A stretch of 64,000 nt of DNA, from assembly GCF_963675165.1 (NCBI RefSeq), contig NC_087378.1, forward strand, positions 5,699,205-5,763,204, written 5' to 3'. Positions 1 to 54,274 of the stretch are shown here, piece after piece. The number at the start of each line of letters is the position of its first letter. Position 1 is the stretch's first letter. Source of the DNA: Halichondria panicea. Lineage: Eukaryota; Porifera; Demospongiae; Suberitida; Halichondriidae. The notes beneath the pieces are model-generated. The model was not told where the DNA came from. It did not search any database and saw nothing but the letters and a program-made list of their open reading frames with translations. Position numbers and translations under genes: made by a program.

Positions 1-1104
1 CATCAGTAGTGCTTGGACATGACTCCTGGCTATATCTAACTGTCATCGCTTTGACTACAAATATTGAAAGTCGATCATCCGAGGGCGATGACGTAGTATA
101 ATGGCATTTCACCCTACAGTGTGTAAAGTACAATTGGCGGAAAGTGCACTTCAGTACTCACGATAGATTCGAGATGGGCCATCATTTAAAGTTAGCGCAA
201 ATGCAACAATTAGGAGCACATATCTATCAGCTCTCAATGAGCACATAACTATTATCATTATACCTCAATGTACTGTCGTTTTCATAAACACTGAACACAA
301 TAATTATACTGTAGCAGCTAGAGGAGAACAGCAGCATGAAACAGAATAGCGTGGGTTGTTATTAGAGACCTAGTACTTTTTCACCTTGCATGTTAGTTAC
401 CTGCATATACACGCCCACATCGGTTCACGTATGTAATCCATTTAAATACTTAAATGATAATATCTTTGAAGTATGTGTATTATCTGGTTCTGGGGAAAGT
501 TTCACACAAACGGAGTGTCAACAAATCTCGACTGCGGTTCCTTAGTTGAACGCAACTGTGTGTGTGTGCATGGAAAGCACGGACTTTTCACACGATAAGT
601 TGTGCCAATTATCAATTCAGTCAGCTGCATTGACAAAATAACTCTACTGTGCACATCTACCTAAACATCAATTTGTTCCAAATGTATGCTTGATCCAAAT
701 GTCATGTTGCAGCTTCACATTAATTTTAGTATTGAGACTTTACCACCTCATGAGTACTAATTCATAGGTTGTTGCCTGAGACTTCATGGTCAAACACAAG
801 TTTTCGATTGCGTTTGCAGTTTACGAAGCTTCTTTGGAGTTTGACCTGCCTCTTACAAATGATTCAGTGTACAAGTATTAAAGGAGCCACAAAGACCAAT
901 ATGGCGTGAGATCCAATTCTTTGCACTGATCTCTATGTGATCTCTATGTGCCTTCGTAGTGTCAGACGAGAGGAATCCAACTACATGAATTTAATGATAT
1001 TGTACAGATTTAAGTCATCCACTTACAGATGATGACAAATCATTGCTTGAAACCATGCAAGTACGGCAACATTTTAAAGCTCCACCCCCACCTTCCTTGA
1101 AACC
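1..1104. other. No recognisable feature
   Basis: AT-rich sequence with no coding stretch I recognise on either strand. It holds a perfect tandem duplication of an 11-bp unit at 927-948, one of many such duplications in the window. Confidence 0.5.
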
Positions 1105-1693
1105 CTGCTGCTGCTGGGTGGGTTATCTGCGAGAAATGCTACCAGGCAGCCGTAATACTGTCTCATAGTGCCATCGGGAAGAACCAGTGATATACCCTAT
1201 AATATATAAAGTTCAAGAAAGACATGCATGTACAATAAGATCTCACCTCCGTAGCAAGTGTCTTCAAGTCTTTCACCATTGGCGCAAGTACAGAATCAGG
1301 ACTAGCAACTGCCAGGAGTGCAAAGTGGATCGATGGGCAGGATGAATGTTGAGAAGAGTCCAGTAAACATTCCGCAGCATGCACCTATAATTATAACCTA
1401 ATTTAGCCAAGAGTCTCCAAATCATCATAATAAAATGCGCTCCATCACAATAATCACGAAGAATGCCGCACATCAGTGTTTAGGAGTAACGCCTATAAAT
1501 AATTATATATAGTAGAGGAATAAAAGTAATTATATATAAAATTGATTTTACCTTCAACGACTCGGAATGAAGATAGCCAGATGGCGTTTATGCTCCTGGG
1601 AAAGGGAAAGTAAGTTGTTTTTTGGGGTTTGTTATTAAAGAGTGAAATGTATTAAAGAGTGATATAATTATACACCTTTAAATACACCTTTAA

Positions 1694-2595
1694 CCCTTCA
1701 ACCGTCGGATTCTTAATTAACAGTGAAGTGAAATGTCTGTAAATTCGGTTTCCAGAGCAATAAAATGCCTAGCAACCATATACCAATAGAATTCCCATAC
1801 AACAAGGAATAGAATAAAATAGTGCAACATGTGTTGCCATAACAACCACGGTTATTACGCTCCACGGTTATTACGCTCACCCGTTTTTTACGCTCACCCG
1901 TTTTTATCATTTTAAATGCTCGGCCAGCGGTGAGATAAAATCCAAAAATTTTTTTTTATGGATCAGCCTCTTGACTAAGCTTGATTTTCACATCATATGA
2001 ATGTAACAGTGCTAAGATATATCAATTTGAAGTACAATACGTACATGTATTACTATATCGGTGAACGATCTATGAAATTTACAAGCTCACATAAAGACTG
2101 TTCATTACTGCTAATTCTATTTTAGCTATACTATACTTACACTACTGATATTCTAGCTATACTACCAGAGTCACACAGTGAGCCCTCTCCTAGCTAGTGC
2201 TAGCGTCTAGGTCCATGTCATGCATGTCCTCAGTCCCAGACAGTTCATCAGCGTCTGGCATAAAGCTGGTAGCCTTTGGGAGGTATCCTACTATCCCCTC
2301 TCCTTCATAGGCATTGTCATCACCAGAGGAGACATCGCCATTGCTGTCCTCAAGCTGTTCAAGCACATCGGCACAAGTAAACAATCTAGCCATAGCTATA
2401 AACTTCGTGCGGTAAGATGCTAATGAAATTTTAACATAGCAACGTGGCTTGGAAAATTCTAGACTAAATTGCACGTGATTCTACAGCTCTTCCTCTATAC
2501 AGAGATGTGCGTAGTTCGAGCTACTTCCTAAGTATCGCAGAATTAGAATTTCGCACTATTGCGGGCCACGATCGTGGCCCGTGACGGTTAAAGGG
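1694..2595 (-). mobile_element. Non-autonomous piggyBac derivative, copy 1
   Basis: The element begins CCCTTCAACCGTCGG and ends with a matching inverted terminus (reverse complement CCCTTTAACCGTC). It is flanked by TTAA at 1690-1693 and TGAA at 2596-2599, which fits the TTAA target duplication of piggyBac with one mutation. A perfect 18-bp palindrome, GGGCCACGATCGTGGCCC, lies inside the right end. A second copy is at 33739-34428. Both keep the two ends and an acidic N-terminal coding piece but lack the catalytic DDD region. Confidence 0.75.
2190..2474 (-). pseudogene. N-terminal acidic fragment of a piggyBac transposase
   Basis: This is an open stretch of about 95 residues rich in Asp, Glu and Ser, with DVSSGDDNAYEGEG and PDADELSGTED. 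Acidic N-termini of this kind precede the catalytic DDE_Tnp_1_7 domain in piggyBac transposases. The reading stops before any catalytic residue, so it cannot encode a working enzyme. The same region in the copy at 34101-34292 keeps the motif with a few in-frame deletions. The assignment rests mainly on the TTAA-flanked termini of the element around it. Confidence 0.5.
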
Positions 2596-3078
2596 TGAAC
2601 TCACAATTTTGTGAAACACTTCGTTGAAGTACTTTTTCTGAAGATATGAAGTTGAAACTTGTGAGAACAAGCTCTTCACCTTAGTCTGAAGTAGTGTTGT
2701 GAAACATTTTGGGTCCCTGCTGTCCTGTATCTCATTCAATGCGTATCTCATTCAATGCGTTATCAATGACAGCTTCAAAGAGGAGTGTAGTTGAGAGGAG
2801 TGTAGTTGAGGACATTATGGCTGGTTGTGTAAGGCTGGCCAGTGCCGTTCTTTTACGCTGAGAATGAACTTGGCGGCATCTGATTGTGACCTATAGACAA
2901 TATTAAATGAGGATGTCGCATGTCTTAAGTACTTACAAAGCTGTATATGAAGCTGTATATGGTATAATTATTTATATCAGTGAAACTTACTGGCCTGGAG
3001 CCTGTCCTCTTGTTCGGTTCATCACTCTGGGTGTCCAACAGTTGTTTTACAACCTCTTGTAGGCATGCTTCTTATAGC

Positions 3079-3414
3079 TATCCAATGATAGTAAGCAGAA
3101 AGTTTAAGATTGCTCATTTCTTGCTTGGAAAAAGCACCTAAACGCATACTCCATAACTATTAGAACCTGCGCCATTAATTAATGCGATGCACTGCAGCTC
3201 TGAACTGAATTGACTATGAGTAAGACGGTAAGGATGTTTGGTATATTTTTATCATCTAGTAAGAAATTGATGGGAGCTTGCGACTTCAGTGAGTTCTCTT
3301 TTCAGCTCCGGCTAAAACAGTTTGTTCGGAGAAATACACCTGTGTCCTTAGCCGCAGGGAAAAGCGCACTGTAGTCGAGGAAGATGTAAGTTAACAACTT
3401 TATTAAATCACGTT
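3079..3414. other. No recognisable feature
   Basis: No coding stretch or structured repeat recognised beyond a short ATTAATTAAT run. Confidence 0.4.
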
Positions 3415-3545
3415 TTTCACGTTTTTCTTTAAAAATCCGTAGCCCAGACACCGGGGGTACCATATACTAGCAACTGACCACCCCTAACTATTGTTTACAA
3501 ACATTCACAATAACATTCACAATATTGTGTTCTCACTGTGACATG
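3415..3545 (+). repeat. Dispersed repeat module, copy 1
   Basis: Shares blocks with 44873-45097: a TTTTTCTTTAAAAATCC block, AGCCCAGAC followed by CCGGGGGTACCAT, TAGCAACTGACCAC, and a TTCTCAC(A/T)GTGACA end. A more diverged inverted copy lies near 48890-49065. The blocks keep order but differ in spacing. Copy 2 ends in a splice-acceptor-like CTCACAG, and here the coding stretch at 3538 starts at the same place. Confidence 0.6.
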
Positions 3546-3709
3546 GTTCGATCTCTTTGGAGATGAAAGGCTGGCATTTATAAGGGAATGTGTGGACTTC
3601 ATTGAGGCTACCAATCAAACTCCATCAAAAGAGCAGTTGAATGATACGGCTAAGCAACTCTGTGACAGGGTACCCAGCATTGAAAGATCAAAGGAAGTCA
3701 ATGTATTGG
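3538..3709 (+). CDS. Candidate exon, function unknown
   Basis: An open stretch of about 57 residues begins TWFDLFGDERLAFIREC and continues through SKEQLNDTAKQLCDR to a good donor (GG|GTAAGTACATG). There is no clean initiator: the first in-frame triplet is GTG, and the position corresponds to an acceptor-like site in the related repeat at 45 kb. The amphipathic, Asp/Glu-rich sequence looks like the start of a helical domain, but I do not recognise the family. No following exon is evident. It could be an exon carried by a repeat rather than part of a host gene. Confidence 0.3.
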
Positions 3710-3807
3710 GTAAGTACATGTACACAACTTTAGGCTCGCTATATAGCTTAGGTATTAATTATGCTAACATGCGCCTAGGAAAACAACCCAAACTAGCTCA
3801 TTACATT

Positions 3808-3893
3808 AGAGTGTGTGTGGTGTGTGGTTGGTGCTTCAATTAGAGCGGTGCGTAGTAACAGTAAAAGTAATTAGTAGCGACACCGAATTTTGT
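3808..3893 (+). repeat. Dispersed repeat, copy 1
   Basis: GTGTGTGTGGT, TTGGTGCTTCAATTAGAGCGG and AGTAATTAGTAGCGACACCGA also occur at 24066-24141, with a partial copy at 23915-23957. It is followed by a shorter variant (GTGCGTAGTACTAGCGACATC) near 4096. Nature of the element unknown. Confidence 0.65.
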
Positions 3894-4821
3894 ATATAAG
3901 ACCAGCTGGATAGTAAACCTGAGGGGCTTGCAGAAGCCACTAATCACTCCCAAAGGGTTACTATCCAGTAAGCAGTACTACACATGGTCTATCTCGCTTA
4001 GAAAATGCAGGGTAACCTCTGCTAGCAGGTTTCTTAGTTGGATAGACACGTGCAGCAGTGGCCACTTCAAAGCGCAAATTTTTTCTAAATTAGAGGGTGC
4101 GTAGTACTAGCGACATCGAATTTGTAAGAGAGGTAAGTGTGTTGAACTTTGAACCCATCACTCGAGAACGAAGCACAACCCCAGTAGTCAAAATCGAAAA
4201 CACCACGCATGCATGCTGATTCCTCGATGGAGGTGCAAGCTACATAACATATACACATATTATATCTTGATGAACATTTTAAATTTTGCTGCATGCAGAC
4301 AGAAACCTTGAGTCCAGGAATCATAGGAAAACTTAGGAAAACTCAAAGAGATTGAGAATGATTGTTGTTAAAAACGGTTGATGCAGCAGAGCCTTGCAGC
4401 TTTCTTCTCACTCTTGCAACTACCAATAGCTAAACTACCAATAGCTAGCGTTCTAGTGCTAGTAAGTAGAGTAGCAACACTCGGTGAACTAGTTTTGCTA
4501 CGTACTCTTCTGACTGCAGGCATAACTCGAGAACGAAGCATTATTTTACAAATCCATGAATACCAATCCAAGAAAACCAAGAAAACAGCTTATAGAAACT
4601 CTTACTTACACTTCATTGAGTAACAGTCTACACAAACACACTACCGTATACCTCGCTTGCGCATGCGCACCGAGGCATAACAGTCCCATAGAAGAAACGA
4701 TGACACACACTACGAGGATTAATGATGCCTCGAGTACCCAGTTAATCTCTTGTTAGTTGATGTTGATTGTTAGTTGATGTTGAAGAGAGAACTGTTGGGA
4801 GACCATGTGCTGAAATAAACT
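3894..4821. other. No gene recognised
   Basis: Contains a small inverted pair, CTGGATAGTAAACC near 3906 and GGGTTACTATCCAG near 3956, which could form a hairpin. Near 4430 and 4750 there are tandem duplications of about 15 and 17 bp. No coding stretch is convincing. Confidence 0.4.
4750..4783. repeat. Tandem microduplication, 17 bp x 2
   Basis: The 17-bp unit TTGTTAGTTGATGTTGA occurs twice with no spacer. It is an example of the window-wide two-copy duplication pattern. Confidence 0.9.
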
Positions 4822-5612
4822 TTGAGGAAGCTTCGTTCATTAAATTTAAATTGGAGCATAATTTGTTCAAGGATTGGTGTGTCAAGACAAACTTTGTATC
4901 GTCGGCTAAAGATGGAAGGAATTCTTGAAGATATGCAGTATTTAGACAATGATCTTGATGACATCATTCGCGACATCATTCGCCACATAAAGATTGATCA
5001 CCCCAATGATGGCGAGGGTGGCCACATCCGAATTCAACGCTATCGGCTTGTTGAACGCCAATTGTGAGAGCATGCAAATTATGTGTGGCACATAGATGGG
5101 CACCATAAGTTAATTAGATGGCACCTAGTAACTCACGGTGGTATTGATTGGCTTTTCTTGCCTAATCACTTTCCTCAAATGTTCCACCAACAACACAGCG
5201 CTGTCAGTGTTCTCTGAAGTCTTCCTAAACGTGTCAGTTAGGTGGCGAGACTGTTGCTGTGTGGCGTATGATATCGCAGTACGGGGATCAATCAGTACTG
5301 GAAGCTCCACCCATAACGAACGTATCGAGCGGTCCGTTGTGTTTCCAAGCTGTTCTATGACACTATTCACTCTCTCCTTTGAATGAAACCTTTGAATGAA
5401 ACCGATATTATTCTGCCTTGTATGTTCCCATAATCAATCGATGTTTGCAAGAATTTGTTGAGTCCTGGAACCAACACCATCAATTGCGGTCGTTACCTTC
5501 AACCCAACTGGACCTTAACGTTGGTGATGGTACGTTGTGTAGCGCAAGACCTATTGATCGTGTCCTAGGAGTACCTTCCGGTGCTGCTCTGTTAACATTT
5601 CGCATAGATTAA
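4822..5612 (+). pseudogene. Integrase-core (DDE, rve-like) transposase pseudogene
   Basis: A helix-turn-helix start (SRIGVSRQTLYRRLK) is followed by a spacer with HIKIDHPNDGEGGH. The catalytic core then begins VWHIDGHHKLIRW with the first Asp, and VTHGGID and LKCSTNNTALSVF follow. STHNERIER lies near the catalytic Glu region. A C-terminal piece reads YVPIINRCLQEFVESWN. The order matches the eukaryotic integrase-core transposases common in sponges and cnidarians. Several frameshifts and stops separate the pieces, and tandem duplications at 4965-4990, 5380-5405 and 5592-5625 contribute. The family is related at domain level to the intact gene at 34735-36208 but differs in its motifs. It cannot encode a working enzyme as it stands. 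Confidence 0.75.
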
Positions 5613-5625
5613 CATTTCGCATAGA
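5592..5625. repeat. Tandem microduplication, 17 bp x 2
   Basis: TTAACATTTCGCATAGA occurs twice with no spacer, at the 3' end of the integrase pseudogene. Confidence 0.9.
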
Positions 5626-5639
5626 TGCAGTTGGCACCC

Positions 5640-7268
5640 ATGTTTCAGCTTGCGAATGAACTTGTTGTAATTATAACTAGCTTTGTGTAGTCATGCTTAG
5701 CCGCACAAGGAATAAATTTGTAATTTATAGCTACAGTTATGTCTCGAGGCTTAGCCGCACAAGGAATAGAATTACTTCTAACATGGGTCATTAAGGTGTA
5801 AATTCAACGAATCATCCTTTGAAACATGGTCATGTAACTTACATAATAATTATAGCGATCAATGTCCAAGTTAACAAAAATAACAAAAATAATTATGAGG
5901 ACTTCAGTGTTGCCACGCGGCAGGAGGTTAAATGAACCAGATATAATAACACAACACCTGTTCTATAATGAGACTCAAAAAGCTCCTGGCTCTCAATGTT
6001 CGTAGGTAGAGTTAGGACAGGTCCACACGTAGAGGCTAAAGGAAACGTACTTCAAGGGATGGGGGCCTAGAAAAACCGTGGCAAACGCTAGCACTACCTC
6101 CAGCCCATTTTATTCATGGCTAACAACTACAAGATTCAAAAAGCATTGGTATTACTATAAAATGCCCCTCAATTATTATGCATTTTTTTACAATCTACAT
6201 TTTTATCTTGTATCTAGAATGTGTTTCTGTTGATGGGTTTCTGTTGATGGATTGGAAACGAAAATGTTTGCGTGAAACAGTTATAAGGTGTGGCTAAAAC
6301 TACAAAGGATCATATTTCATTACCTGTCTTGCTGCCACACAATGTGCTGTACATACCACTTTTAATGTTAAAAAGTAAAGAGAATCTAGCTCTAAAAGGT
6401 CGACTAAGCAACGCAGCCACATCAAGAAACAGCTCTTACTATGAAGGTCAAGGCCCGTGGTGGTGTCTCTAAAAGTATACGACTATACTGCAAACGTTTA
6501 GCATAAAACCATCCTATATAGCACTTAGATACATAATAACCAAGTCCTGTCAAGCAATGTCCTTTGCTGTTTCGGCTTCACAGCGTGACATAGGGTCAAC
6601 AAAAAGTAAAAACAGAGAGACAACTTACTTCTCTAGAGTACCTCCCAGCTCCTGAGTGATCGCTAGTGGATAGGACGGTAAAAACTAAAATATTCGCGAG
6701 CACGAAATCATAACGCGGAGTGTTTCACCCGTTGACACAGGGCGGCTTTCCAATCCCTTTCCTGTTCTATCTATGTACAAACCAACTTGTGTCTATGCTG
6801 ATATCATTTTTAACTAATTAAGCACCCTGCGGGTCTGATAGTGACGGGGTGACATACTCCTACCGTAACCTGGTTTACACCTACAGTTGGATACTCCTCT
6901 ATGTATTCCATAAAGAAATTCAAAACAAGTACTTGTTGTTCTACTTCTCGGGCATTAAGTTTGTACACTGCTCATTCAAATCCATTACCTTGTGGAGGAC
7001 CCGAAACATCATCACTTTTTGCATCCACATTTAAAAAATGATGTACCTACAAACAAGTAACGGAAACCCGGCCATATGGAATCATATGGAATTGGTGTTT
7101 TAGAGCACTGTGAAGTTCACAACTCGATTAGACGCAGCAGTGCTCTGAACACAGCAGACGGAAGTATTCTCTGCTAGGCTTCCTCACCATGGAATATGAC
7201 CTCAACTGGTTTTGTTGCTCATATAGCTTTTAAAGTCAGACGCACCACTACCTATCTCTTTAATTGTG
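5640..7268. other. No gene recognised
   Basis: Contains GCTTAGCCGCACAAGGAATA twice (near 5697 and 5752) and tandem duplications near 5872, 6227 and 7075. The short open stretches at 6290-6472 and 6849-7034 look non-coding to me. Confidence 0.4.
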
Positions 7269-8735
7269 TCAATCAATTCTTTTAGGTTTCTGTGAGCGTT
7301 CGCTTGCTTTTCTGATGGAGGAACATTCTGCAAGAGTGCAGATACTTGTAGCTTGTTTGGAGAGAAAGTATCTCATCAGTACTCTGTACAGGGCCTCCCA
7401 TGATTCAAGAAGAAACCGGTGCGTACGTTTGAAATTCGTACCTAATGACCTTGGCAGGTAGCCACTAGATCTTGCTAGGTCACTCAGACCTGCATCAAAG
7501 TATATCTTAAGCAATACCTCCTGGTAATTCTTTAAGAAGTGCCAATCCCCAGCGAATAAGATGAGCCATTGCTTTCGTTCCCATATTCTAAAGAGCATTG
7601 GCGATTGATGGTAAACAGTATCTGGCATAGAGTAAACACACTCTTGTTGGACGGTTGTGTTATTAGACATGCAGCCTTCCATATTGCCGGGTCAAGATTA
7701 TCAACAAATGCATCTACATCAAAATGTTTAATTGTGTGTGGCTCTAATTGTGTGTGGCTCGACAGAGTCAGCTGTTATCAGTTTGTTAGCATGAGCATGT
7801 AGCATGTAGCTTGCTATTAATACTCTTGTGTAAGCATACATGTAGCATCTTCTTCGTTAGCATGTACATTTGTGTTTCTTTGCCCGAGAGCGCATGTACA
7901 AGATCACCCCCATAGCGGTATATTAGTGTACCATATTTTGGAATGGAATTGCACACCTGTAAGCCATGTGATGCTGTAGCAGTGAGCTTCTTAGCCAAGT
8001 ATGACTGTGAAGATCTTTGTCTTCCTTTTGTATATCCGATTTTGTAGCAATGGAATCTAGTTCGAGTTTAAATTTCGAATACACTTGTGGTAGTAGAAAT
8101 GCGGTCTGTTTTAGAAGGCCTTCACCAACTGTAATAGCTAGTATGTGAACAGTATTACATTCTCCCAAGTACGAACATCTGACAATCTAGGAAGATTCTG
8201 TTTTTTCTCCGAAAGTAGATCTGTCAGGTCTGCATCTGTGCTCGTAACTTAACATGAGACTTATAGCAAGCATAACACACACGATCATCTGGTTGAAAGG
8301 TGCTTTTGAATTCAGTATTAGGAAATGTTGGAGTACTACTGGCTCTGGCACAGGACGGCTTCTGTTACGAATATGTTTTCCACATGTTTTGCAGTCACTA
8401 TGTGTTGCGTGTGCATGCCTGTACCATTGCATGTAGTGATATGAGCAAATTGGTAGTTCCATCTTCAAAGGTAGCATCATTGTGCCCCGCTGGGAAAAAT
8501 TGTGATTATTGTTGTGCATCGATTGACTTGGCTTTAATGTCAGTGTTCGTACAATTAGGAATATAACAGATCAGTTTTATGATACCTGTATTCTTTCTCC
8601 ATCTAGGTGAGAAGCTAATAATATCATTTACATCGCTTACATCCCTCCTACAAAGCAAGCAGTTGCTGCAGCAGTGAAGAAGGATCTTTCTAGGATTTGG
8701 GATGGGAATACTCTTTCTTCTTACACAGAGCACAT
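7269..8735 (-). pseudogene. DUF6589-type repetitive gene, degraded
   Basis: On the minus strand the pieces occur in family order. A Cys-rich stretch near 8270-8520 has HSDCKTCGKHIRNRSRPVPE and, in another frame, DDRVCYACYKSHVKL. A middle piece at 7860-8170 has LLQHHMAYRCAIP and YGTLIYRYGGDLVHAL. The DUF6589-like piece at 7290-7660 has AGDWHFLKNYQEVLLKIYFDAG, broken here only for length, then FKRTHRFLLESWEALYR. These proteins are repetitive in sponges and cnidarians and behave like transposon genes. Their biochemical role is unknown to me. Frame changes between pieces, and the 16-bp duplication at 7729-7760, mark it as a pseudogene. Confidence 0.6.
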
Positions 8736-8949
8736 TCTTCGCATGATCGGCCTGGATGTACTGCTGAAGTTACATGACGCGACTCTCTTCCAGTATCTCT
8801 AGCAGATCTGTATTAAATAATAATTATTTGTTGTGTTGATAATTTTGTGTGCATTGTTTTCATAGCAAGTGGTCAACTCTTGTACAACCATTAAACTAAT
8901 GAATATACAGTAGAACAGCCCAATTTTTTGGACATAATTCGCATCAGCC

Positions 8950-9490
8950 TTTGAAGTATTGATGTGCAAACTTTGGAGTTGATGGCAGGTAGGTTTGATG
9001 GCTGCACAAACAGCTCTCGTGTAAAGCAAGACTCAGTGTTAAAATTGTGAGATGATGAGATGCAAATATAATTATATTCAAGGAATAAAAAGTTACACTG
9101 AGCTAAAGTTAGTGCAGAAATTGAGCTTGAAACCGCAGGTCCAGATAGACAACTTCCGGTTCGTGAGGTAAATTTGGCCTTGGTCATTCGACTGTCTAGG
9201 ATCATCAGCCGGGCATAGGCAAGCTTATCGTGGTGAGAATTGCTGTGTAAGTCAGGAACGGACATCCCTCATGCGGGGGCTGATATGTTGCCTGGAGCGT
9301 GGATGCTAGTTGTCGGCCAGCAATTCTCGCATCTCCACAAATTGACCACAAATTGACCAGATCGAATCTTGTCGACAATTTTTTGTGGGACGGGCGCTTC
9401 TGCCGGTGAGAGAATCAGTCCGCTTCCACCATAGGATGACTGTGGCAATTGGTATGTAGATGGGGCGCTGAGTTGGTTTTGGGTCAACGG
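8950..9490 (-). pseudogene. Fragment of an 'EMRELL' repetitive protein gene
   Basis: The reading starts SAPSTYQLPQSSYGG and continues through PQKIVDKIRSGQF. In a shifted frame come VEMRELLADN and, downstream, MRDVRS and LAYARLMI. This motif series belongs to a repetitive metazoan protein family that I associate with tyrosine-recombinase or retroelement ORFs. The shift between RSGQF and VEMRELL falls exactly on the tandem duplication of CCACAAATTGA at 9335-9356. Further stops follow. It is a dead copy. Confidence 0.5.
9335..9356. repeat. Tandem microduplication, 11 bp x 2, inside a coding remnant
   Basis: CCACAAATTGA occurs twice head to tail and breaks the reading frame of the 'EMRELL' pseudogene at this point. 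Confidence 0.9.
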
Positions 9491-14139: not shown

Positions 14140-14140
14140 G

Positions 14141-38520: not shown

Positions 38521-38534
38521 CAAACTACCTACTA

Positions 38535-41893: not shown

Positions 41894-41929
41894 TTTACAT
41901 CAATACGTCACAGAAAGCAGCAAAAAAGG

Positions 41930-42248: not shown

Positions 42249-42254
42249 TACACT

Positions 42255-44226: not shown

Positions 44227-44872
44227 GTGTGAGTTAAGTATAAATTAGTGCAAAAATATCCCAATGTACAGCACCTATTACCTACTACTCCAAGGATGGT
44301 GATGCATGTTATGTGACCAATTTGTATCTATCGAATTCTCAAGTTCGTTCTCGAGTTACGGACATCTCGTACGGTGAGCACTAAATCACTCTAGCCACTT
44401 TCATAATTATATCCAGAAACGTAATGTGGTTAAAGCTCTTCTCTCTACCCTAGGATGAGAGTGTTAATTGTGGTAATGATACGCATCGTTTTTTTTCGAT
44501 TACTTTTACTTTCTACAGCCTTTCTACAGCATTCATGGAAGTTTACTATCGGACATCAAGGCGGCAAGTGATGAGCCCGTAAAGAAAAAACGAAAGTGCT
44601 CACTATTTGACCCAGCAATTTTTCACATTGCAAATGTTTTTCTACTCGGATTAATAAATAGATGAAACAGTCCCACAACACATGGGGTCATGGGGTCAAA
44701 CTATTTCACTCCTCTACCATTTCAGGGGTGATGTCCAAAATGATCCCAAGTTAAGTTTTGCACACACATGGATGCACACACATGGATGCACATGGAGCAC
44801 ATGGCACAAAAAATTCACACCCATGCATCCACTATAATTCCGGCTTTAATTAAAAACAAGAAAATACGGAAT

Positions 44873-45097
44873 AAATACATGTTTTTCTTTAAAAATCCAT
44901 ATCTTATGAACCATACATTGAATCGTAACTATTTCCTACAGGTAGCCCTAGCCCAGACCCCGGGGGTACCATGACATCATCATCGTTACTTAGCAACTGA
45001 CCACTCCCAACTAATTAGCGATTGTTTGTACACAAACAATATTGGCACAAAGTGACTATAGACACTAAGTGTTCTCAATGTTCTCACAGTGACACAG
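44873..45097 (+). repeat. Dispersed repeat module, copy 2
   Basis: Collinear with 3415-3545 (see there), with extra sequence between blocks. It ends TTCTCACAGTGACAC. Confidence 0.6.
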
Positions 45098-45890
45098 GGC
45101 CCTTTTCCCGGGAAACGTTTTCTTCACCTACACACAGTTCAATGGTGGCTCATGCTAACTAGCCTAAGCAAACCTAGCTATCCTGAAAGCTTCAGGATAC
45201 AGTATGTTGTACAAATGCTACTCTAGACTTACCAGATCCAGAAACTTGGTCCAGCTTCTACCTAGCTACGATCCCAGTCACTGTCCTCTCACTCTACAAG
45301 GCCATAAGCATCTCACAGCTTTAGAACCTCACTGAGGCTGTACTATGAAGATCTTGAAGTCATCATCAAACGGTCACTTTTCTTTCAAAATACCACGTGA
45401 AAGAGCAGCTCAATGCGCATGTGCTGGTACCTACAGCGTGCGCATAGCTCCAACACAGTGTGCACAGCAAATTTGTGAAAAATCTCGGTCTGCTGGACGA
45501 CATATGTCGTCCAAAGCCGGGAAAGGGTTACCTCTTTATACAACTTGTATATAGCCAGCCATGCATGCAGGATCACTGTTTTCTCGTGTAGGCCTCCAGC
45601 CCAAGCTTTCACCTTCCTTAATGTGTATAATGATCACAATCATGCATTTTTTATAATCAGTCCCTGGAACAGGAGAGGACGTGAGTTATCGGACTGTATT
45701 AAAAAAGCATGTATTAAAGCAGGTATGCAAAATTTTGACCAAAATAAGGATTTGGATTTTTAAACTAGATCACCATTATAATTATTTATACTAGAGTCAT
45801 TGAGTCGTCATTGAGTCATTGAGTTTTGGTGGGAGCATGAAGAATGTTAGGCCGCGACCTCATGTCCGGGGTACGCCATATTAATTTTTA

Positions 45891-46425
45891 ACAAATTAGT
45901 TAGTCCTGACAACACAGTGCATAACTCGAAAGCGCTTCGACTTTTGATTGTGCAAGTTAGGCTAGGAAGAAAGACAAGTCAAAGATCTACAAGATGATGC
46001 CCGAATCACTTACTATCTCGAAAATTTGGCTGCTTCTGTCAAGTGGTAAGTAGTAGTTGCGTATAATTCCACTTCTTTTCTAGAAGCTAATACTTATTGT
46101 GCTTGAAGAAGCTTCGCCTTTTTTTTTGTGCATGTACTGTAGGTGTGGCTTTATTATAATTATTATCTACTCGTGGCACAAATTAGTTAGTCTGACAATA
46201 CCTTGCATAACTCTAGGAAGAAAGACCAGTCAAAGATCTACAGCTTACTATCTCGAAAATTTGGCAAGTGGTAAGTAGTAGTTGCGTATAATTCCACTTT
46301 GTTACTTGGCTTTTTCGATTCTCTAGAAGCTCTAATACTAATTGTGCTTGGCACATAGCTGTAGAGTTTAAACGCTTTGCTTCACCTTTTTTTGTGTGCA
46401 GGTACTGTAGGTGTGGCTTATATAC
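45891..46425. repeat. Imperfect tandem duplication of about 260 bp
   Basis: Copies at 45891-46160 and 46181-46425 share ACAAATTAGTTAGTC, AGTCAAAGATCTACA, CTTACTATCTCGAAAATTTG, CAAGTGGTAAGTAGTAGTTG and TACTGTAGGTGTGGCTT. The copies differ by small indels. Confidence 0.85.
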
Positions 46426-47869
46426 AAATGTGATCTCGTGTGTGACTGTGAACGAAGAAACACTTGCAGTGGCCCAGCTCTACCAAGCTGTATGTTGACT
46501 GCATGTAGTGATGTTTAGAGTATTCTTTACTTTAGGGCCTATGATACACTTTGATAAAATAATACAGTAATACAGCAGATAGTAGAATTTGTAGTACTAA
46601 GAACCCTTCATCATCTTTCTTTGTGTGTACAGAGTATTGCTGGATCACAGATGCGCAGGTGGTGGAGCAGTCAACGAAACGTACGTGCCACAAGGTGAGT
46701 GATAGGCTGTATCTACCGAGCAATGCAGTACGTATGTACGCATAGCTTTGTTGCTTTAAATATTATTTATCATTAGCGTACATCATGTGACTATAAATGA
46801 GGCCGTAATAAACAGTAAATAAGATAATAATTATAATGTTTACAAGTTCTTATGCCACAAATAGAAACAGTCTGATGTTGGGTTTCCACCATGGCAGACC
46901 ACACTCGCTACATCTCCAGCAGCCTCTTGTTGGAGTCCTTCCAGCAGAACGCACACCTTCCCTGTTTACATCTCTTTGCAGGTGGTTGCAGGCACATTTT
47001 GAGAGGAAAGTGTTGGAGCTCTACTTGAGCGGCCTGGGAGTCTCCTTGAATGGTACCGTGGCCAGTTGGACTTTTACGTTTCGATTTGGCTTGGAGGTTT
47101 TTAGTGTGTAAAATAAAAGAAACATCAAATAGGAAATAAAATATATACTTGTAGAACTTTCGACTTCTTGTTCAACAGGAATAATATCCGCGTATTCTGT
47201 ATGTGCTTGTTGTATGTATGTGCTTGTTGTAGATGATTATGCTGTCAGGGCAACTCACAGGAATTCTTAAACCGTCTCTCTGACGCCTGAGAACGGATCC
47301 CGTTGCTACTGGTTGCGACGTCGTTGAGAGGACCTTGCTGTCGTGCCATGCACTTCTCCTCTGTCAAAGGTGTAGTTTAGTTAGCACAGTCTCACACACC
47401 ACACACACACACACACACTCGCAAAAGCATACACATTACACAAAGCATACACATACACACACACACATACACACACACACGCATCAAACAAACAGACGAC
47501 GGAATGTTCCTTCAGGAAAACAGTTTTTCATTGCATCGTTTTTCTTATTCCGCATAAATCCTGATAAAGTGATTCGTCCACGCTAACTCCTGTTTTGTCT
47601 TTCGTTTTCTGCTTCTGTACACCTTTTTCTTAACGATTTAACTTTCTTCGTCTTTTGTGGCGTATTTAGATACCGATCATTTGCAAATGTCATGGGAGAA
47701 GAGTCGACTTTGCATAGCTCGAAGTTGATATCTATAACTCTTCGCATGAGGATCTCACAGTCACTCGTCCGTTGAAGAACACCAGTTAACACTTTCTACC
47801 GATGCCTTAATTTCACCACCTGATGTCAAAAATTTTCCTTTGTGTTTTTCTCTCAGCTCAATGGATGAA
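46426..47869. other. No gene recognised
   Basis: A (CA)n microsatellite with CATACA interruptions is at 47391-47500. The plus-strand stretch at 46836-47111 and the minus-strand stretch at 47583-47792 have no recognisable domain. Confidence 0.4.
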
Positions 47870-48340
47870 ACCACTATCAGGATTGCCAGGACAAATTCTT
47901 GCTGTATCCAACTGACTGCTCATTATAACAGCTTGTGGAATGGATGACAAGGGGTTAGTGGGGGAAGGCATAGTGGGGGATTTGTGATCGGGATAGAGCA
48001 ATGCGTAACAACCAATGGTTGAGCCGTGCCTCTGAAGTTTTTCGATTGGTTTTGTAATTGATTGCTCCATGAATACTTGAGCTTGGTCTTGCCATCAAGA
48101 GAGCTACGACGATCATCCACCTAGATTGAGGTTTATTATGAACTGTAAGCTACTCACTAATGCAAGCACTTACGCACAATACACTATAAATAACAACTTA
48201 CTCTGAGCTGCTCCGAGCTGCTCCATCTCCTTCTTTCTCATCTGTTTCTTCTCCTTCTTTCTCTTCTGTTTCTTCTCCTTTCTCGTCTCACCATTCTTGA
48301 CAGTGGTGTACAAAAAACGTCGAGGCATTTCAGATGATCT
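47870..48340 (-). CDS. Possible two-exon gene with a Lys/Glu-rich N-terminus
   Basis: Minus strand: a stretch at about 48200-48335 reads PRRFLYTTVKNGETRKEKK followed by repeated KKEKKQ- and RKKEMEQ-type sequence. After a gap with a possible acceptor at 48121 comes ITKPIEKLQRHGSTIGCYAL and SPTMPSPTNPLSS, ending ICPGNPDSGFIH with a stop near 47862. Splice sites are plausible but the family is unknown and the composition is low-complexity. Confidence 0.25.
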
Positions 48341-48889
48341 AAAACGTGCAGCAAAGGATTATGGGATATTTCATTTGAACAGTTTTATAAAACTGCTTAA
48401 TGCCTACAAAAAATAATATTGAGGATCATCGATTAATGACGCCACTACGGGTACGGAAACATGTGCACTAAAAATCAACAATTCTAAAAGTGTTGGTACA
48501 AGGCTTACTTTCACCATACAGTTTGGTGTATCTATACCCAATATGTTTTATTATGATTAATTGTATGTGTTAGATCGTAACTCACAGAGTTATGGGTAGA
48601 GAAACCAAGGGTCAAATTTCTCAGACTTGTATGATTTATTTCAGCTGCCATGTGGTGTGGTGCTCAGTTGGCGCCGCATACCACAACACGAAGCTTCTTT
48701 CTAGCACCAAAGCGAAACGCGGCTATAATTCAGATAATGCGTCATCACACTGGTTTTGTGCAGCATCACGTGAGGCGTTTCCAATCCATTTCTCTATCTT
48801 GTGTAGGTGAAGAAAATTAGAACCTGATCCTGGTTGAGTCCTGAGTGAGCCATGTCACCGTGAGAACATTCTGAACATGTTCATCATTG
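48341..48889. other. No gene recognised
   Basis: No coding or repeat structure recognised apart from a short plus-strand open stretch at 48592-48810. Confidence 0.35.
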
Positions 48890-49065
48890 TGTACATAATT
48901 GTGAATTTTTGTTAATATTTGTTATTTGTGGGGTGGTAGTTGGTTGCTAGGCAACGATGATTCCATGGATGCGACAGGTCCGATTCTACCTGTGGAACTT
49001 TGTTACAAATAATTATACGGTTCATGAGTTATAAATTTTTTAAACAAAATATTCAAGCAGGGAAA
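48890..49065 (-). repeat. Dispersed repeat module, diverged inverted copy
   Basis: On the minus strand, CTCATGAACCGTA, CACAGGTAG, GCCTAGCAACCAACTACCAC and AATAACAAATATT follow the order of the 44873-45097 module. Confidence 0.45.
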
Positions 49066-49907
49066 GGGTTATAAAAATTATACGAAAAAATATTTTTAAG
49101 ACAAATTACAAGCCGTAGTGGTGTTTAATTACACAGAGACGACACACAATTTACCAAACTCCACAGACTCTGCAGTCAAACTCTGCAGCATGCTAGAGCG
49201 TACTTGAGTTTTTCATAGCCACTCAAAGACGTTTCTTAAGTCTTGAGATGTCACCAAACAGAAATCCACTGTAGCCTAAAATCCACTGTAGCCTATAATA
49301 ATTATTAAGAATTATTAAGATCAAGTCATACAATTGCACAAATCTAACACAAAATTGGTGTATGCACAAGAAGTGATAATACTCACACAAATCATTTCTT
49401 GACTCCCAGCGATTAGGGTAGGTTTGACCCAACAGACTTTTCAACTCTTCTGTTCGAGGTTTTGATTTTTCCATCTCAGAAGTCAAGAGTGACTCGTATG
49501 AAATCGGTTCGGTGGAGGAGCACTTTCATTTCAAACACATCCTACACCCGCGTATCATGGAAGGACAATTTTTAGGCATGCAAGGTAACAAGCTGGATAT
49601 TTTCTTTCTCATTGATGGGATACAGATACATACATGGAAAGTGTTTTACACTTAATTATTATCATGAGTTGTCTCATCAGAATAATGTATTCCTACCAGT
49701 GATCTCACACTACTGCGCATGCATACCATTATTATCCTTTTGGCTTTGCAAATATTTGTTTCCCAAGCTACGATTCACACTTATAACACACTTATAACAC
49801 TACAACTACAGACACAAACAATTAACGCGTATCGCCCATAAGTAAACTATGAGCACCTCATATACATCATCTTTTACACCTCATTACATCAACGCTTCCA
49901 GTCTCCT
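49066..49907. other. No gene recognised
   Basis: A minus-strand stretch at about 49400-49490 (KSKPRTEELKSLLGQTYPN) ends at a GTGAGTAT donor and could be an exon. Nothing adjoins it. Confidence 0.3.
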
Positions 49908-50330
49908 ATAAAATGGCAACTTAGAAAAATACTTCACAATCCGAGAAGATCAAGAGGAAAATTAAACATGTCTGACGATGAACTGCTGGGTATCAGAAAT
50001 CTCTACATCGAACAAGATTATTATGGAAGACCAAGTCACAGCTCTCAACCCACCACCAGCCGGCAGCTCAGCCGGCACAGCATCCCACCACCAGTGGACC
50101 GCCAGCCACAACAACTCTCAACCCACCCCCTTTTTCTTCACCAGGGGCACCCGTCAGAAATTTACCTCTACCAGGTCCGATGGACTATCCATATCCTCCT
50201 CAGTATAACGGCGCTCTCCTCCCTCTCCCACCTTTCTATGGCCATGGACATGGACAACAGGGCCAGAACCAGGACCAGGAGAAACACCCCCCCTAGCCCT
50301 GCAACCACAATAGCATACGCCTTGTAAAGA
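49908..50330 (+). CDS. Proline/serine-rich reading frame with TATA box, possibly broken
   Basis: TATAAAA at 49908 precedes ATG 49968 by about 60 bp. The first frame gives SDDELLGIRNLYIEQDYYGR and then Ser/Pro/Gln-rich sequence. A second frame over 50110-50320 gives a more coherent PGAPVRNLPLPGPMDYPYPP and FYGHGHGQQGQNQDQEK before a stop. One frameshift near 50060 may therefore separate two halves of a disordered, gag-like protein. No catalytic motif. It may be an element's first ORF. Confidence 0.3.
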
Positions 50331-50525
50331 TCGTTTATAGTTTATATCATTACACATGTTCAGAGCTAGTTGGGCGTGGCCCCCCAGAGGTTCATGGTGA
50401 AGATCGTCGTTTATATCATTACACATGTTCAGAGCTAGTTGGGCGTGGCCCCCCTCCCTGGCCAGAGGAAGATCGTTCAGTATAGAAAAGCTCCAGCCAG
50501 GTGAAGATCGTTCAGTGTAGAAAAG
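50331..50525. repeat. Tandem repeat of about 70 bp
   Basis: GTTTATATCATTACACATG followed by TTCAGAGCTAGTTGGGCGTG and GCCCCCC occurs at 50336 and 50410. AAGATCGTTCAGT(A/G)TAGAAAAG occurs at 50470 and 50504. Confidence 0.85.
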
Positions 50526-51589
50526 TTAAATGTTCTCAAATTGATTTTGTGCGCATGCACAGTCTCCTTCCAGTGACAGCAACCTCGCGAGACACTCACC
50601 ACATAGTATACCTTGTGTATCTAGCTACTCCGTATAGTCCCCCCCATTCATACCTTTACAATGGTCCAATCTACCTCTACTCATACACATCATTATCGCA
50701 CGCTATCTACCTCTTTCACAGGTAATGCATGATGCTCGCATGTGTATTTCACCTCTATTCTAGGACCACTACCGATTGTTCGATGTATTATGGCGAAGCA
50801 TGTTCGTGCCAAGACGATTGTTAGCTTCTGGAATTTCCATACAATGATACTGAATTGATCAATCTAGGAAAATGTCATCCAAATATCTTTTTTGCCCACT
50901 CCGCGATAACTTATAGATCATTAGTGCTTAGAGAACTGTTACAACCCTACATGTACGAAACACCCGACGGAGTATCAAGCTGTGTACGCCCCAGATATTC
51001 CTGATTTCGAATTTGATGAAGGATTTTACCTCTGTGAAAATTGCCCAAAAAATTGCCATGAAGGAGAAAAATTTCATACTTGCCCTTACTCTGCTCCACA
51101 GAGCTTGATCTTAGCAACAATGAACAGTAGTTTTTCACACACAGTGTTTGTCATAGTCCACACACACATATGTCCCACATATGCACACACATTTACTTAC
51201 ATGCATGTAATTATACCACATACCCGCACACACACACACAAACCAACAAACACGTACCACACATGCATACTCACATGGACACGTGCACACACGCTAGCAC
51301 ACACGCTAAACAGCTAAACATGCGAGCAATGTGCCTACTTTAACTGATTATGCGCCTATTGGCGTCGTTGGGGTTAACACGGCAGCTGCAGCAATTCGGC
51401 TTCTCTTGGCTGCTAAGCTGCTGCTGGACTGAAGCTAGGACGCCTTCTATCCACCGTCAAGGTACGCATATATAAAGTAAAGTAAAAAGCACACAGAAAT
51501 TTGTTTAGATACAGACGCTTGAATACTACTGTTGTAAACACAAAATATTTATAACATGAACAAACATTTTTTTAACAATAATATAGAGC
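50526..51589. other. No gene recognised
   Basis: A plus-strand stretch near 50980-51090 reads FEFDEGFYLCENCPKNCHEG with four Cys, then a CA/TACACA-rich microsatellite at 51160-51300. It could be an exon of the gene remnant that follows. Confidence 0.3.
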
Positions 51590-52495
51590 TGCAGGTAGGC
51601 CACACTGGACGACGGAGGAGGTTCTACAAGACATCTTGAATGATGAGGAACCTGCAGAGGAGTGGGAAGAGGTAACAGCGGTCAGGGATGAGCCAGTCAT
51701 GCAGGGCAGTGACGAAGAATTTTCTGATTGGGAGGTCTAAAACTAAACTGAATACCGATATAATTTATTACAACGTACATGTAGAAATGGAGCCAGACAG
51801 CAATCCTGCACAAGGTAAAAATTGATAATTATAAGGTTAACAAAAACGTGTACACTTCGGGGAAGCTACATTCAACATGAGAATGATTATGGACTAGGTA
51901 CGTACGTTATGCAATGTATGTGTGACTGTTTACTGAGAATGTACATAGAGAGTGTACAATGGTTCAGGAGACCGGATGGGCTGGTGGAAAAATCGTTCAA
52001 CTTTGCCGGAGAAAAATAGGAGAATTACGAGCAGCAGAGAAAAGTTGACCTCAGGTACTGCGTATTATGTGCAATCTACAATTTATAATTTTGCTACATG
52101 TATATAAATGTGCAGTGAGTTTGTAGAGGACGAGCAATCAGATGAGCCAGTAGATGAAAACGAGGACGATGGTGTACATGTACTTGACGAAGATCTTTAT
52201 GAAGACATATAAAGTAAGTACGTATCCGTGCAAATTTTAACTAGCCGATCAGCATTTGCATTTTACATTAAACATTAAACAACTCCATCTGGATTTGGAA
52301 ATCGCTCACGCACCTCCTGGAAACAATTGATCGTACTTGCACTGTAAAGTGGGCATCATTTATATAACTTACTCTGTCAGGTCCCTCCACCAGTCTTGAA
52401 TGGAGAGGGTCCCTGCCCGTACTGCCACCTGTCACCGTGTATCAGAGCCAGACCACCAAGCGCTTCAAACTATACAGAAAGTATTAGACGCTGCT
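51590..52495 (+). pseudogene. Acidic exons and a Cys-rich exon resembling parts of the Kolobok-like element
   Basis: Exon-like plus-strand pieces are PHWTTEEVLQDILNDEEPAE and VMQGSDEEFSDWEV (51600-51740). After a CAG acceptor at 52115 comes EFVEDEQSDEPVDENEDD, ending DEDLYEDI and a stop at 52210-52212. A further piece at 52381-52495 reads VLNGEGPCPYCHLSPCIRAR. The CPYC-C pattern recalls the CPHCLCGPC motif of the small gene at 57119-57843. This may be a rearranged relative of that element, but the piggyBac-like acidic pieces could equally come from another transposon. Confidence 0.35.
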
Positions 52496-52512
52496 AGGTC
52501 AGTTGGGGGTAT

Positions 52513-53879
52513 GGAATCACCCCCATAATGGATAGTTTCCTCTCCTGGAAGTAGTCGTCAAGTCCATAATGGAATAGCAACGGTAACATAAAAATACAAC
52601 GACTATCACTTAACAACCCAGGGTTGTTCGATTTAAACCAGTATAGTGTGTGCTAGCTACATGTACTGTACTCAACACACCTTATGTAGAGAATGTCACA
52701 CACACACACACACTTACCATGGTGGCTTTCACCCAATCTCCCTGGAGTTCTACACACTGCGTTATGGTACACACTGCGTTATGGGTGTTATGGGCATAGT
52801 TCGGCTACCGTCTACAGGGTTTTGCAGAATCTTGTGTTAAGCGTATACTCCTCTAGCGTGTCAGGTGATTTCACGTGGTTGGTGATATTCAGAACAAGCA
52901 CACAGTACACAGTAGAGTCAAGAGAACAAGAACAATATCTATAGTACAGTATGAATGACAGTATAGGTAGCGCTAGTGCCCCTGGGACTCCAAATACCAA
53001 TACCTATGGACATGTCCAAGTTATGCCCCTGGCTATTGTTTCAGCCAACCCAGCAAGAGTACAGTAATTGATCCCAAGAAGCAAAGCAATTATAAAACAG
53101 TGACTTGGTTCCTGACGACGTTTCTCATGACTTATGTGGATATTAGATATTATCATGTACAAGAAGAGTATTAATTTGTGGTGTGAAGGTATAATTATGG
53201 AAAATGAACCCCCGGCTCCACCTGCAAAAAACCTCGTATAACACTAATCCTGTACGGTACAAAAGGCCCGTGCCCTGGGCAGGCCTTTGACCCCAGCTCC
53301 AACATCCCGTTCAAACGATTTAGACAGCTCTAAAACATTTTATACCAGGCTTGTGTTCCAAAAAACACATAATGGCTAGACTCAAGGTACCACAAAAGAT
53401 AAAATGTACATCTATTCAGCTTCAGGTACGGTACAGCCAGCTGCACTTTCTCGAGAAGTTACTTGCGCTGTTCCCCGTCGTCACTCTTGACGAAATTGCA
53501 TATTAGAATGATGATTTCAATGTCAGGCAGGTGTAGTACATCATTACAGTGGTGAAGCTGCGAAGAGGCCAAAGAGTCTAGAGGAATTAATTTCAATAAT
53601 TATCACGTGATATGGATGACGATCACTTTCTCGAGTAAGGACGGTTGGGGATGAAGCCGGTCCTTCGAGTACATATGAGTGGTACTTTCCTACCTTGACG
53701 ACTAGGAAAGTCAGGAAGAAATGGTGAGGCCAGGCCACCATATATTGTAGCTAGTCAGCACAATAATTATTACAGTGCATGAAAAACAGACAGCAAATAA
53801 TCGGCTATTGGACTGCAACTCCACGTGAAGAGACCTCCACGTAAAGAGACCTCCACGTAAATTCCCGATGAAGCAAACT
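52513..53879. other. No gene recognised
   Basis: A short (CA)n run is at 52698-52712. ACACACTGCGTTATGG is doubled near 52755-52782. Nothing coding is convincing. Confidence 0.4.
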
Positions 53880-54140
53880 CAAACTCACACCCTTTCGAAC
53901 CAATGTCGCAATGTCGAAAGTGTGGACTCACATGGCGTGCCCTGCAATCGTCAATGCCACGCAGTAAACAACAATGGAAAGGAACTAGACGTATACGACA
54001 AGTTGGAACTGCACCCAGACCAGACACAGAGTCAGATGCAAGCAGTAGCGACGACGAGTACCTCGGAAACTCTACCCGACATCCCTGTTACAGTGATTCG
54101 AAGGAACATTGCAAAGCGCATGTTTGGGATCTGACTCTCT
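53880..54140 (+). pseudogene. Possible retroelement gag zinc-knuckle fragment
   Basis: A plus-strand piece has SQCRKCGLTW, a basic stretch, then DTESDASSSDDEYLGN in the same frame. CxxC followed by acidic SSSDDEYL is common after the zinc knuckle in Gypsy gag proteins. Frames are not consistent enough to be sure. A near-perfect 16-bp duplication lies just upstream at 53827-53858. Confidence 0.35.
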
Positions 54141-54274
54141 GACTTAGGCTATGATATACGTGCTGATAGATTATTTCTTTTGCTCCTCAGTATCACAACC
54201 ACAATGCGTTACCATGGCGAATGCGTTACCATGGTGAACCACGTTTTTTCAATTTTATTTTCACACGAGGCAAG

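What the first reader, a model, noticed from the sequence alone, without database searches (positions are those of the whole stretch)
900..54240. Pervasive two-copy tandem microduplications of about 10-18 bp
I found dozens, usually perfect and without spacer. Examples: 927-948, 1846-1877, 2728-2759, 2779-2808, 4750-4783, 5592-5625, 7729-7760, 9335-9356, 14046-14075, 17250-17277, 24146-24181, 27546-27579, 29080-29113, 31988-32021, 33645-33676, 53827-53858, 54203-54236. They are almost always exactly two copies. They break coding frames of dead elements (9335, 17250) and differ between LTR partners and between piggyBac copies, so they arose after insertion. This may be a mutational signature (for example fill-in repair of staggered breaks) or a systematic assembly error.
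Basis: seen in the sequence. Interest (0 to 1): 0.8.

Follow-up and report, generated by a model that had tools for sequence, protein, structure and literature searches.

The report
Chromosome block scarred by break repair
A stretch of at least 100,000 bases on one chromosome of a 131-million-base genome is full of tiny duplications, with tiny deletions of preferred sizes beside them, far more than in other places sampled, as if its DNA kept breaking and being glued back together.

Summary
In detail: 15 of 17 listed sites are perfect tandem duplications and 2 have one mismatch. The window holds 62 exact tandems of period 10-17; order-5 Markov sequence gives about 0.05. They are regional, not pervasive. 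The window plus 20 kb on each side (104 kb) has 113 two-copy duplications of 10-17 bp; twenty other 10-kb samples (192.5 kb readable) have 24, an 8.7-fold lower density, while 4- and 5-bp repeats are equally common. In repeat-family DNA the contrast is 1.70 versus 0.09 per kb. Lengths stop sharply at 17 bp: 21 at 17, two at 18, none from 19 to 100 in the block. No motif marks the ends. A young 3.8-kb element in the block is 99-100% identical to six distant copies of nearly equal length, strong evidence against assembly error. Best reading: joining of staggered breaks, concentrated in one block. Whether the block is a centromere, a non-recombining segment or merely unconstrained DNA is open.

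The parts
1..64000 (.). Window part of the duplication-rich block (block seen at C2:5679205-5783204; its ends were not found)
   Evidence: 62 exact tandems of period 10-17; flanks L025-L028 have 11-17 per 10 kb of period 10-18; 2-kb samples at 5.55 and 5.85 Mb have 0 and at 5.63 Mb 1 (periods 9-18)
1846..1905 (.). Two overlapping duplications, 16 bp (1846-1878) and 17 bp (1871-1905), private to this F1 repeat copy
   Evidence: absent from the 7 other F1 copies aligned
1690..2577 (+). Copy 1 of repeat family F1
   Evidence: 9 substitutions, 7 indels of 5 bp or more against the family majority
2727..2760 (.). 16-bp perfect tandem duplication; no second locus for this stretch was found
   Evidence: search with 2600-3000 found only itself
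2779..2810 (.). 15-bp perfect tandem duplication
4750..4783 (.). 17-bp perfect tandem duplication
5592..5626 (.). 17-bp perfect tandem duplication
7729..7760 (.). 16-bp perfect tandem duplication
13850..14139 (+). LTR-like partner A, with a 15-bp duplication at 14045-14077
   Evidence: aligned to 22987-23222
22987..23222 (+). LTR-like partner B, single copy at the corresponding place
17250..17277 (.). 14-bp duplication at the frame switch of a retroelement reading frame
   Evidence: RVT_1 hit in the downstream frame
27545..27579 (.). 17-bp perfect tandem duplication
29080..29113 (.). 17-bp perfect tandem duplication
31988..32021 (.). 17-bp perfect tandem duplication
33752..34419 (+). Copy 2 of repeat family F1, the most deletion-rich of the eight copies aligned
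   Evidence: 17 deletions, 16 of them of 5 bp or more, six of 9 bp; 35 substitutions in 655 aligned bases
34466..38276 (.). Young mobile element with about 205-bp terminal inverted repeats; internal control without private scars
   Evidence: six full-length relatives on other chromosomes, 3804-3812 bp, 99-100% identical
44840..45530 (+). Shrunken copy (691 bp) of a high-copy family
   Evidence: 19 of the 21 listed relatives covering it are 875-902 bp, two are 759 and 787 (best 40 of 1699 candidates scored)
53828..53861 (.). 16-bp perfect tandem duplication

Best explanation
The duplications are one half of an end-joining scar. In this block of chromosome C2, breaks without sequence preference and with staggered ends up to about 17-18 nt arise repeatedly. 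If both overhangs are filled in before joining, the overhang sequence is duplicated (at most 17 bp). If they are trimmed, it is lost (16-19 bp); intermediate processing gives shorter duplications and the common 7-10 bp deletions. SHOWN: duplications are real, mostly two-copy, post-insertion where it could be tested, rarer in young than in older DNA, limited to 17 bp in the block, accompanied by deletions of preferred sizes, without a motif, with modest microhomology, and concentrated regionally. INFERRED: that the lesions are double-strand breaks, that the ends are staggered, that canonical non-homologous end joining seals them, and that the break rate (not only survival of scars) is higher here. 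NOT EXPLAINED: why 9 bp is the commonest deletion and what makes the breaks.
For: Sharp ceiling: 52 duplications of 14-17 bp against 2 of 18-21 bp in 104 kb. Deletion modes: of 167 deduplicated deletion-like gaps, 70 are 7-10 bp, 5 are 12-15 bp and 20 are 16-19 bp; of 41 private deletions, 22, 0 and 9. Junctions with 0-1 bp of homology: 74 of 113 duplications, 75 of 116 deletions of 6-24 bp. No boundary motif. Private to copies. Regional: 8.7-fold overall, 1.31 versus 0.16 per kb outside long ORFs, 1.70 versus 0.09 per kb in repeat DNA. Two Ku-domain matches, an XRCC4 match and two partial pol-lambda-type finger matches are encoded. Tandem duplications from joined protruding ends by this pathway are shown in mouse cells (PMC5730883, passages).
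Against: Random trimming of one fixed overhang predicts a single broad peak near zero, not a 9-bp mode with a hole at 12-15 bp. Duplications are not peaked at 9. Homology of 2 bp or more is about twice chance (39 of 113 duplications, about 18 expected; 41 of 116 deletions, about 19 expected), which leaves room for microhomology joining. Deletion sizes and indel-rich copies also occur outside the block, so the process is not exclusive to it; the indel-rich F1 copies outside (C8, C12, C9) were chosen for low identity. On Drosophila chromosomes heterochromatin or lack of recombination alone did not raise deletion size (PMC8794474, passage). No reads or break maps were available.
Confidence: 0.52

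Rival explanations
1. Same mutation process everywhere; the block only retains scars because it is an old gene desert without selection, while elsewhere indels are purged or repeats are younger.
For: Deletion size modes are alike in and out of the block (9-bp non-duplication gaps, 14 with a short copy in the block, 12 outside). F1 copies on C8 and C12 have ratios of indels of 5 bp or more to substitutions of 1.14 and 0.80, above those of the four block copies, 0.42-0.78 (C8 and C12 were picked for low identity). The least scarred part of the window is a young mobile element.
Against: Repeat-family DNA outside has 4 duplications in 45.7 kb against 17 in 10.0 kb inside. In one family with similar substitution levels (11.0% in, 10.3% out) indels of 5 bp or more are 14.1 against 5.2 per kb, but from 2 and 6 copies only. 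Outside long ORFs the contrast remains 8-fold.
Confidence: 0.28
2. Microhomology (polymerase-theta type) joining or replication slippage.
For: Homology of 2 bp or more is about twice chance: 39 of 113 duplications and 41 of 116 deletions. For Drosophila deletions above 7 bp, 39.5-57% with 2 bp or more was read as mostly microhomology joining (PMC8794474, passage); 35% here is only a little lower. A family-A polymerase frame of 1254 aa exists; whether it is polymerase theta was not determined.
Against: 48 of 113 duplications and 40 of 116 deletions have no junction homology. Neither process predicts a 17-bp ceiling or a gap at 12-15 bp.
Confidence: 0.15
3. Each broken end loses one unit of about 8-9 nt when it is refilled, for example because a primase-started fill-in (the CST-polymerase alpha type, recalled from general knowledge) leaves an RNA primer that is removed. 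One end lost gives 9, both ends give 17-18.
For: The second mode fits twice the first: 13-20 bp mean 17.25, self-convolution of the first mode 16.8. Human primase makes 9-nt primers, and an archaeal primase makes 7-nt primers and products of twice that (PMC8076596, passages).
Against: Purely numerical fit on 24 gaps; does not by itself explain duplications; CST and shieldin genes were not sought.
Confidence: 0.1
4. Aborted cuts by a LINE endonuclease or transposase leaving a target-site duplication without an insertion.
For: Lengths resemble LINE target-site duplications (general knowledge).
Against: No motif at 314 duplication boundaries (157 sites) and only mild A+T richness inside 109 deletions.
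Confidence: 0.05
5. Assembly or sequencing artefact.
For: Most duplications are perfect; no reads could be checked.
Against: The young element in the block is 99-100% identical to six relatives with lengths within 7 bp, where the block's density would give about 4-5 spurious duplications. Diverged duplications exist. Old and young copies differ as expected of real mutations.
Confidence: 0.03

Closest known systems
Tandem duplications from canonical end joining of breaks with protruding ends (mouse ES cells, paired nickases; PMC5730883, passages)
   Same: Tandem duplications drawn from the overhang; the paper ties them to small natural tandem duplications
   Different: There the overhang was engineered; here it would be natural, with a 17-bp ceiling and preferred deletion sizes
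Maize centromere 10, where break-repair rearrangement is said to outpace single-nucleotide mutation (PMC4806543, passages)
   Same: A regional, repeat-rich block evolving largely by deletions and duplications
   Different: Events in the passages read are mostly far larger and often microhomology-mediated; no centromere identity is shown here
Drosophila Y chromosome excess of larger deletions (PMC8794474, passages)
   Same: Regional excess of deletions of 10 bp or more attributed to end joining
   Different: Attributed to microhomology joining on a chromosome without a homolog; no 9/18-bp modes in the passages read
Short tandem duplications as the main short insertions in human and rice (Messer and Arndt 2007; Vaughn and Bennetzen 2014; recalled, and cited in PMC5730883; neither was seen)
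   Same: Same kind of mutation
   Different: As far as I recall not described there as a several-fold regional hot block with a sharp 17-bp limit

Membership tests
End joining of breaks with protruding ends | Two-copy tandem duplications with little or no junction homology | tested here: met
   48 of 113 with none, 74 of 113 with 0-1 bp; mean 1.14 bp against 0.69 by chance
End joining of breaks with protruding ends | Duplication length bounded by overhang length | tested here: inconclusive
   An upper bound of 17 bp is seen in the block; that it equals an overhang is inferred
End joining of breaks with protruding ends | Dependence on Ku, ligase 4 and XRCC4 | not testable with these tools
   Ku and XRCC4 domains are encoded; ligase N-terminal domain matches were not assigned to ligase 4; DNA-PKcs domain search found nothing but its controls were silent too
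Polymerase-theta (microhomology) joining | Most junctions with 2 bp or more of homology | tested here: inconclusive
   41 of 116 deletions and 39 of 113 duplications, about twice chance but a minority
LINE or transposase target-site duplication | Cut-site motif at the unit boundary | tested here: not met
LINE or transposase target-site duplication | Insert between the two copies | tested here: not met
   Copies are directly adjacent
Centromere | CENP-A occupancy | not testable with these tools
   -
Centromere | One such block per chromosome | tested here: inconclusive
   Block on C2 seen; a 2-kb sample at C2:4.80 Mb also has 3 duplications of period 9-18; five other chromosomes only sampled, the rest not
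Assembly artefact | Hits young and old DNA alike | tested here: not met
   Young element equal in length to its relatives within 7 bp

The most novel reading that the evidence does not exclude
The block is a centromere or another chromosome domain that breaks again and again with a fixed stagger, so that it evolves mainly by 9- and 18-bp losses and duplications of up to 17 bp; the scars would be a sequence-only marker of such domains and would record how their ends are processed.
Probability: 0.18. Interest if true: 0.85.

Novelty: new variant of a known kind. Interest (0 to 1): 0.62.

Why it matters
Which repair pathway mends breaks in centromeres and other repeat-rich, gene-poor blocks is poorly known; one review states that an end-joining scar is not obviously observed in available centromere sequences (PMC7463522, passage). 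Here is a block where such scars are dense, of definite sizes and countable from sequence alone. If genome-wide mapping finds one block per chromosome, the scars would mark centromeres and give a way to read break geometry from genomes. If not, they still define a break-prone or scar-retaining domain and an unusual mutation spectrum that annotation and alignment methods should allow for.

Tried and rejected
Assembly error: rejected by the young-element control, diverged duplications and private deletions. Chance or base composition: rejected; 50 kb of E. coli has none of 8-25 bp, a mostly coding bacterial control of limited worth; no other animal genome could be compared. Coding constraint as the sole cause of the contrast: not enough. 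Thermal-melting limit between two opposed nicks: longer units are not more AT-rich. LINE-like cut motif: none. Loss of canonical end joining: Ku and XRCC4 domains found. A second haplotype locus: none found for 2600-3000. First-pass gap counts (320 events; 169 deletions) counted shared events repeatedly and are replaced (223 events: 167 deletion-like, 52 duplication, 4 near-duplication). Family-wise comparison is small and its majority rule mixes subfamilies. Species identification by literature gave no match. Eleven paper searches were sent: ten were answered and one was malformed. No listing among them showed, by title or start of abstract, a regional block of this kind; that does not prove it unpublished, as most subscription papers are not held. 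PMC9748784 was seen as outline only and is not used. PMC12321929 (passages) reports Arabidopsis centromere indels as whole satellite monomers and a raised point-mutation rate in centromeres, which does not resemble this block.

Change of odds on recheck: the homology excess proved about two-fold rather than slight and close to a Drosophila benchmark, so the microhomology rival was raised from 0.10 to 0.15 and the best explanation lowered from 0.55 to 0.52.
Full report
1. Check of the observation. All 17 listed sites were tested: 15 are perfect two-copy tandems, one of these one base further on than written, and 2 have a single mismatch. Tandem Repeats Finder lists 16 of the 17 among its 69 rows (not 927). 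A full scan found 62 exact tandems of period 10-17 in the window against about 0.05 in order-5 Markov sequence; periods 18 to 60 gave only a 21-bp minisatellite. Diverged pairs also exist: for periods 13-17, 30 perfect, 10 with one, 8 with two and 8 with three mismatches.

2. Regional, not pervasive. The window is C2:5699205-5763204 of a 131.46-Mb assembly in 39 contigs. Twenty 10-kb pieces from contigs C1-C6 (192.5 kb readable, the rest withheld) hold 24 two-copy duplications of 10-17 bp; the window plus 20 kb on each side (104 kb) holds 113. That is 12.5 against 108.7 per 100 kb, ratio 8.7, p about 5e-30 if sites are independent. The window was picked because a reader noticed it, but its flanks were not, and they hold 54 of period 10-18 in 40 kb. 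Tandems of 4 and 5 bp are equally common (415 and 400; 117 and 119 per 100 kb), so composition is not the cause. Of sixteen 2-kb samples along C2, two were wholly withheld and one partly. For periods 9-18 there were 0 at 0.3, 1.5, 5.10, 5.30, 5.40, 5.55, 5.85, 6.0, 6.3 and 7.0 Mb, 1 at 4.5 and at 5.63, 2 at 2.5 and 3 at 4.80 Mb, so other patches may exist.

3. Not explained by coding sequence alone. Outside stop-to-stop frames of 120 codons the density of periods 9-18 is 1.31 per kb in the block and 0.16 elsewhere (219.8 kb). Within DNA that has a BLAST relative among the fetched loci (repeat-family DNA), it is 17 in 9,982 bases in the block and 4 in 45,691 outside.

4. Size spectrum. In the block, counts by length are 10:17, 11:13, 12:19, 13:12, 14:10, 15:9, 16:12, 17:21, 18:2 and none from 19 to 100. 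Lengths 5-9 are also above chance. The drop from 17 to 18 is 21 to 2 (p = 7e-5), and 14-17 against 18-21 is 52 to 2. Outside, 29 fall at 10-17, none at 18 and 2 at 19-25 in 219.8 kb; the 192.5-kb sample also has 13 of 37-81 bp, unlike the block and not looked at one by one. Units at all lengths have ordinary G+C.

5. The deletion half. Alignment of eight copies of repeat family F1 (four in the block; four outside, three of them picked for low and one for high identity) shows old copies riddled with private gaps and few substitutions, and a near-intact young copy. For the four copies in the block there are 40 indels of 5 bp or more and 79 substitutions; for the three degraded copies outside, 21 and 35; for the young copy, 0 and 5. 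Over all fetched G000 loci, 152 directed alignments (at least 120 bases, at most 8% substitutions, near-by tandem pairs left out) gave 223 deduplicated gap events: 167 deletion-like, 52 exact duplications (42 of them 1-3 bp) and 4 near-duplications. Gaps without clean 10-column flanks and gaps in simple-repeat context were dropped beforehand, the latter mainly small ones. Deletion-like gaps number 19 at 1-2 bp, 33 at 3-6, 70 at 7-10, 4 at 11, 5 at 12-15, 20 at 16-19, 1 at 20, 9 at 21-24 and 6 above. The 41 that are private by polarity (long form in two or more copies, short form in one) number 5 below 7, 22 at 7-10, 1 at 11, 0 at 12-15, 9 at 16-19 and 4 above. The contrast 5 to 20 between 12-15 and 16-19 has p = 0.004. 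The second mode fits twice the first (13-20 bp mean 17.25; convolution 16.8).

6. Time course and artefact test. A 3.81-kb element at 34466-38276 has six full-length relatives on other chromosomes, 3804-3812 bp, 99-100% identical. At the block's density one would expect four or five spurious duplications in it if they were assembly errors; two relatives have exactly its length and the others are within 7 bp. Density along the window (9-18 bp) is 0.26 per kb in this element, 0.64 in the LTR-like element 13850-23222 and 0.82-1.81 elsewhere. Of 214 duplications (8-18 bp, all loci) tested for relatives, 26 had an alignable one. In the block (19): 7 single-copy in all informative relatives, 1 mixed, 9 unresolved and 2 scored as shared but with 8-9 mismatches. 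Outside (7): 4 shared, 3 of them within a tandem array or a local duplication, and 3 unresolved. A high-copy family points the same way: the window copy 44840-45530 is 691 bp where 19 of 21 listed relatives are 875-902 bp (only the best 40 of 1699 candidates were scored, which favours intact copies).

7. Mechanism. Boundaries show no motif for duplications (157 sites) and only mild A+T richness inside deletions (109 events), so a sequence-specific nuclease is unlikely. Junction homology of 2 bp or more is about twice chance (39 of 113 duplications; 41 of 116 deletions) but 0-1 bp in the rest; this favours plain end joining without excluding a share of microhomology joining. Domains of Ku (two places), XRCC4, DNA ligase N-terminus, family-A polymerase and pol-lambda-type finger (partial) are encoded; a DNA-PKcs domain search found nothing, but its controls were silent too. 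In mouse cells, joining of breaks with protruding ends gives tandem duplications drawn from the overhang, and most junctions without polymerase theta lie within the overhang sequence (PMC5730883, passages). That matches a duplication ceiling of 17 and a deletion mode at 16-19, as +n and -n of one overhang. The 9-bp mode needs a further step. Loss of a fixed unit of 8-9 nt per end would give 9 and 17-18; human primase makes primers of 9 nt (PMC8076596, passages), so a primer-removal step is conceivable but untested.

8. What the block could be. In maize centromere 10, break-repair rearrangement is said to outpace single-nucleotide mutation (PMC4806543, passages). On the Drosophila Y, larger deletions are in excess and laid to end joining; the same paper finds that heterochromatin or lack of recombination alone does not explain it (PMC8794474, passages). 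A review notes that an end-joining scar is not obviously observed in available centromere sequences (PMC7463522, passage). A centromere, a segment without a homolog for repair, or silent gene-poor chromatin are all possible; none was tested directly. The chief rival is that the process is uniform and scars merely survive here. One within-family comparison (14.1 against 5.2 indels of 5 bp or more per kb at 11.0 and 10.3% substitutions) argues against it, on 2 and 6 copies; a second family gave 10.6 (1 copy) against 5.2 (7 copies) at unequal divergence; the degraded F1 copies outside argue for it.

9. Verdict. The cause of the breaks and the nature of the block remain open.

Noticed in passing
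window 34466-38276: Young element with about 205-bp inverted ends, ORFs with an integrase-core (rva_4) hit and RING-finger hits just below cut-off, and six near-identical full-length copies elsewhere plus one in pieces on C6.
   Followed up: partly
window 18667-19234: Tandem array of about 93-101 bp units with AC-rich stretches inside the old LTR-like element.
   Followed up: no
window 41561-41772: Minisatellite with units of 15-57 bp.
   Followed up: no
window 50340-50476: Two-copy tandem of 69 bp, 85% matches.
   Followed up: no
window 58312-60643: Likely remnants of a second retroelement on the minus strand; an integrase-core hit below the curated cut-off in one frame.
   Followed up: no
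L043 (C2:4800001-4802000): Three duplications of period 9-18 in 2 kb, perhaps a second dense patch on the same chromosome.
   Followed up: no
L012, L038, L041, L042: Long stretches reading N in the sampled genome.
   Followed up: no
L022 about 8000-9200: Array of 11-bp units on C5, unlike the two-copy pattern of the block.
   Followed up: no
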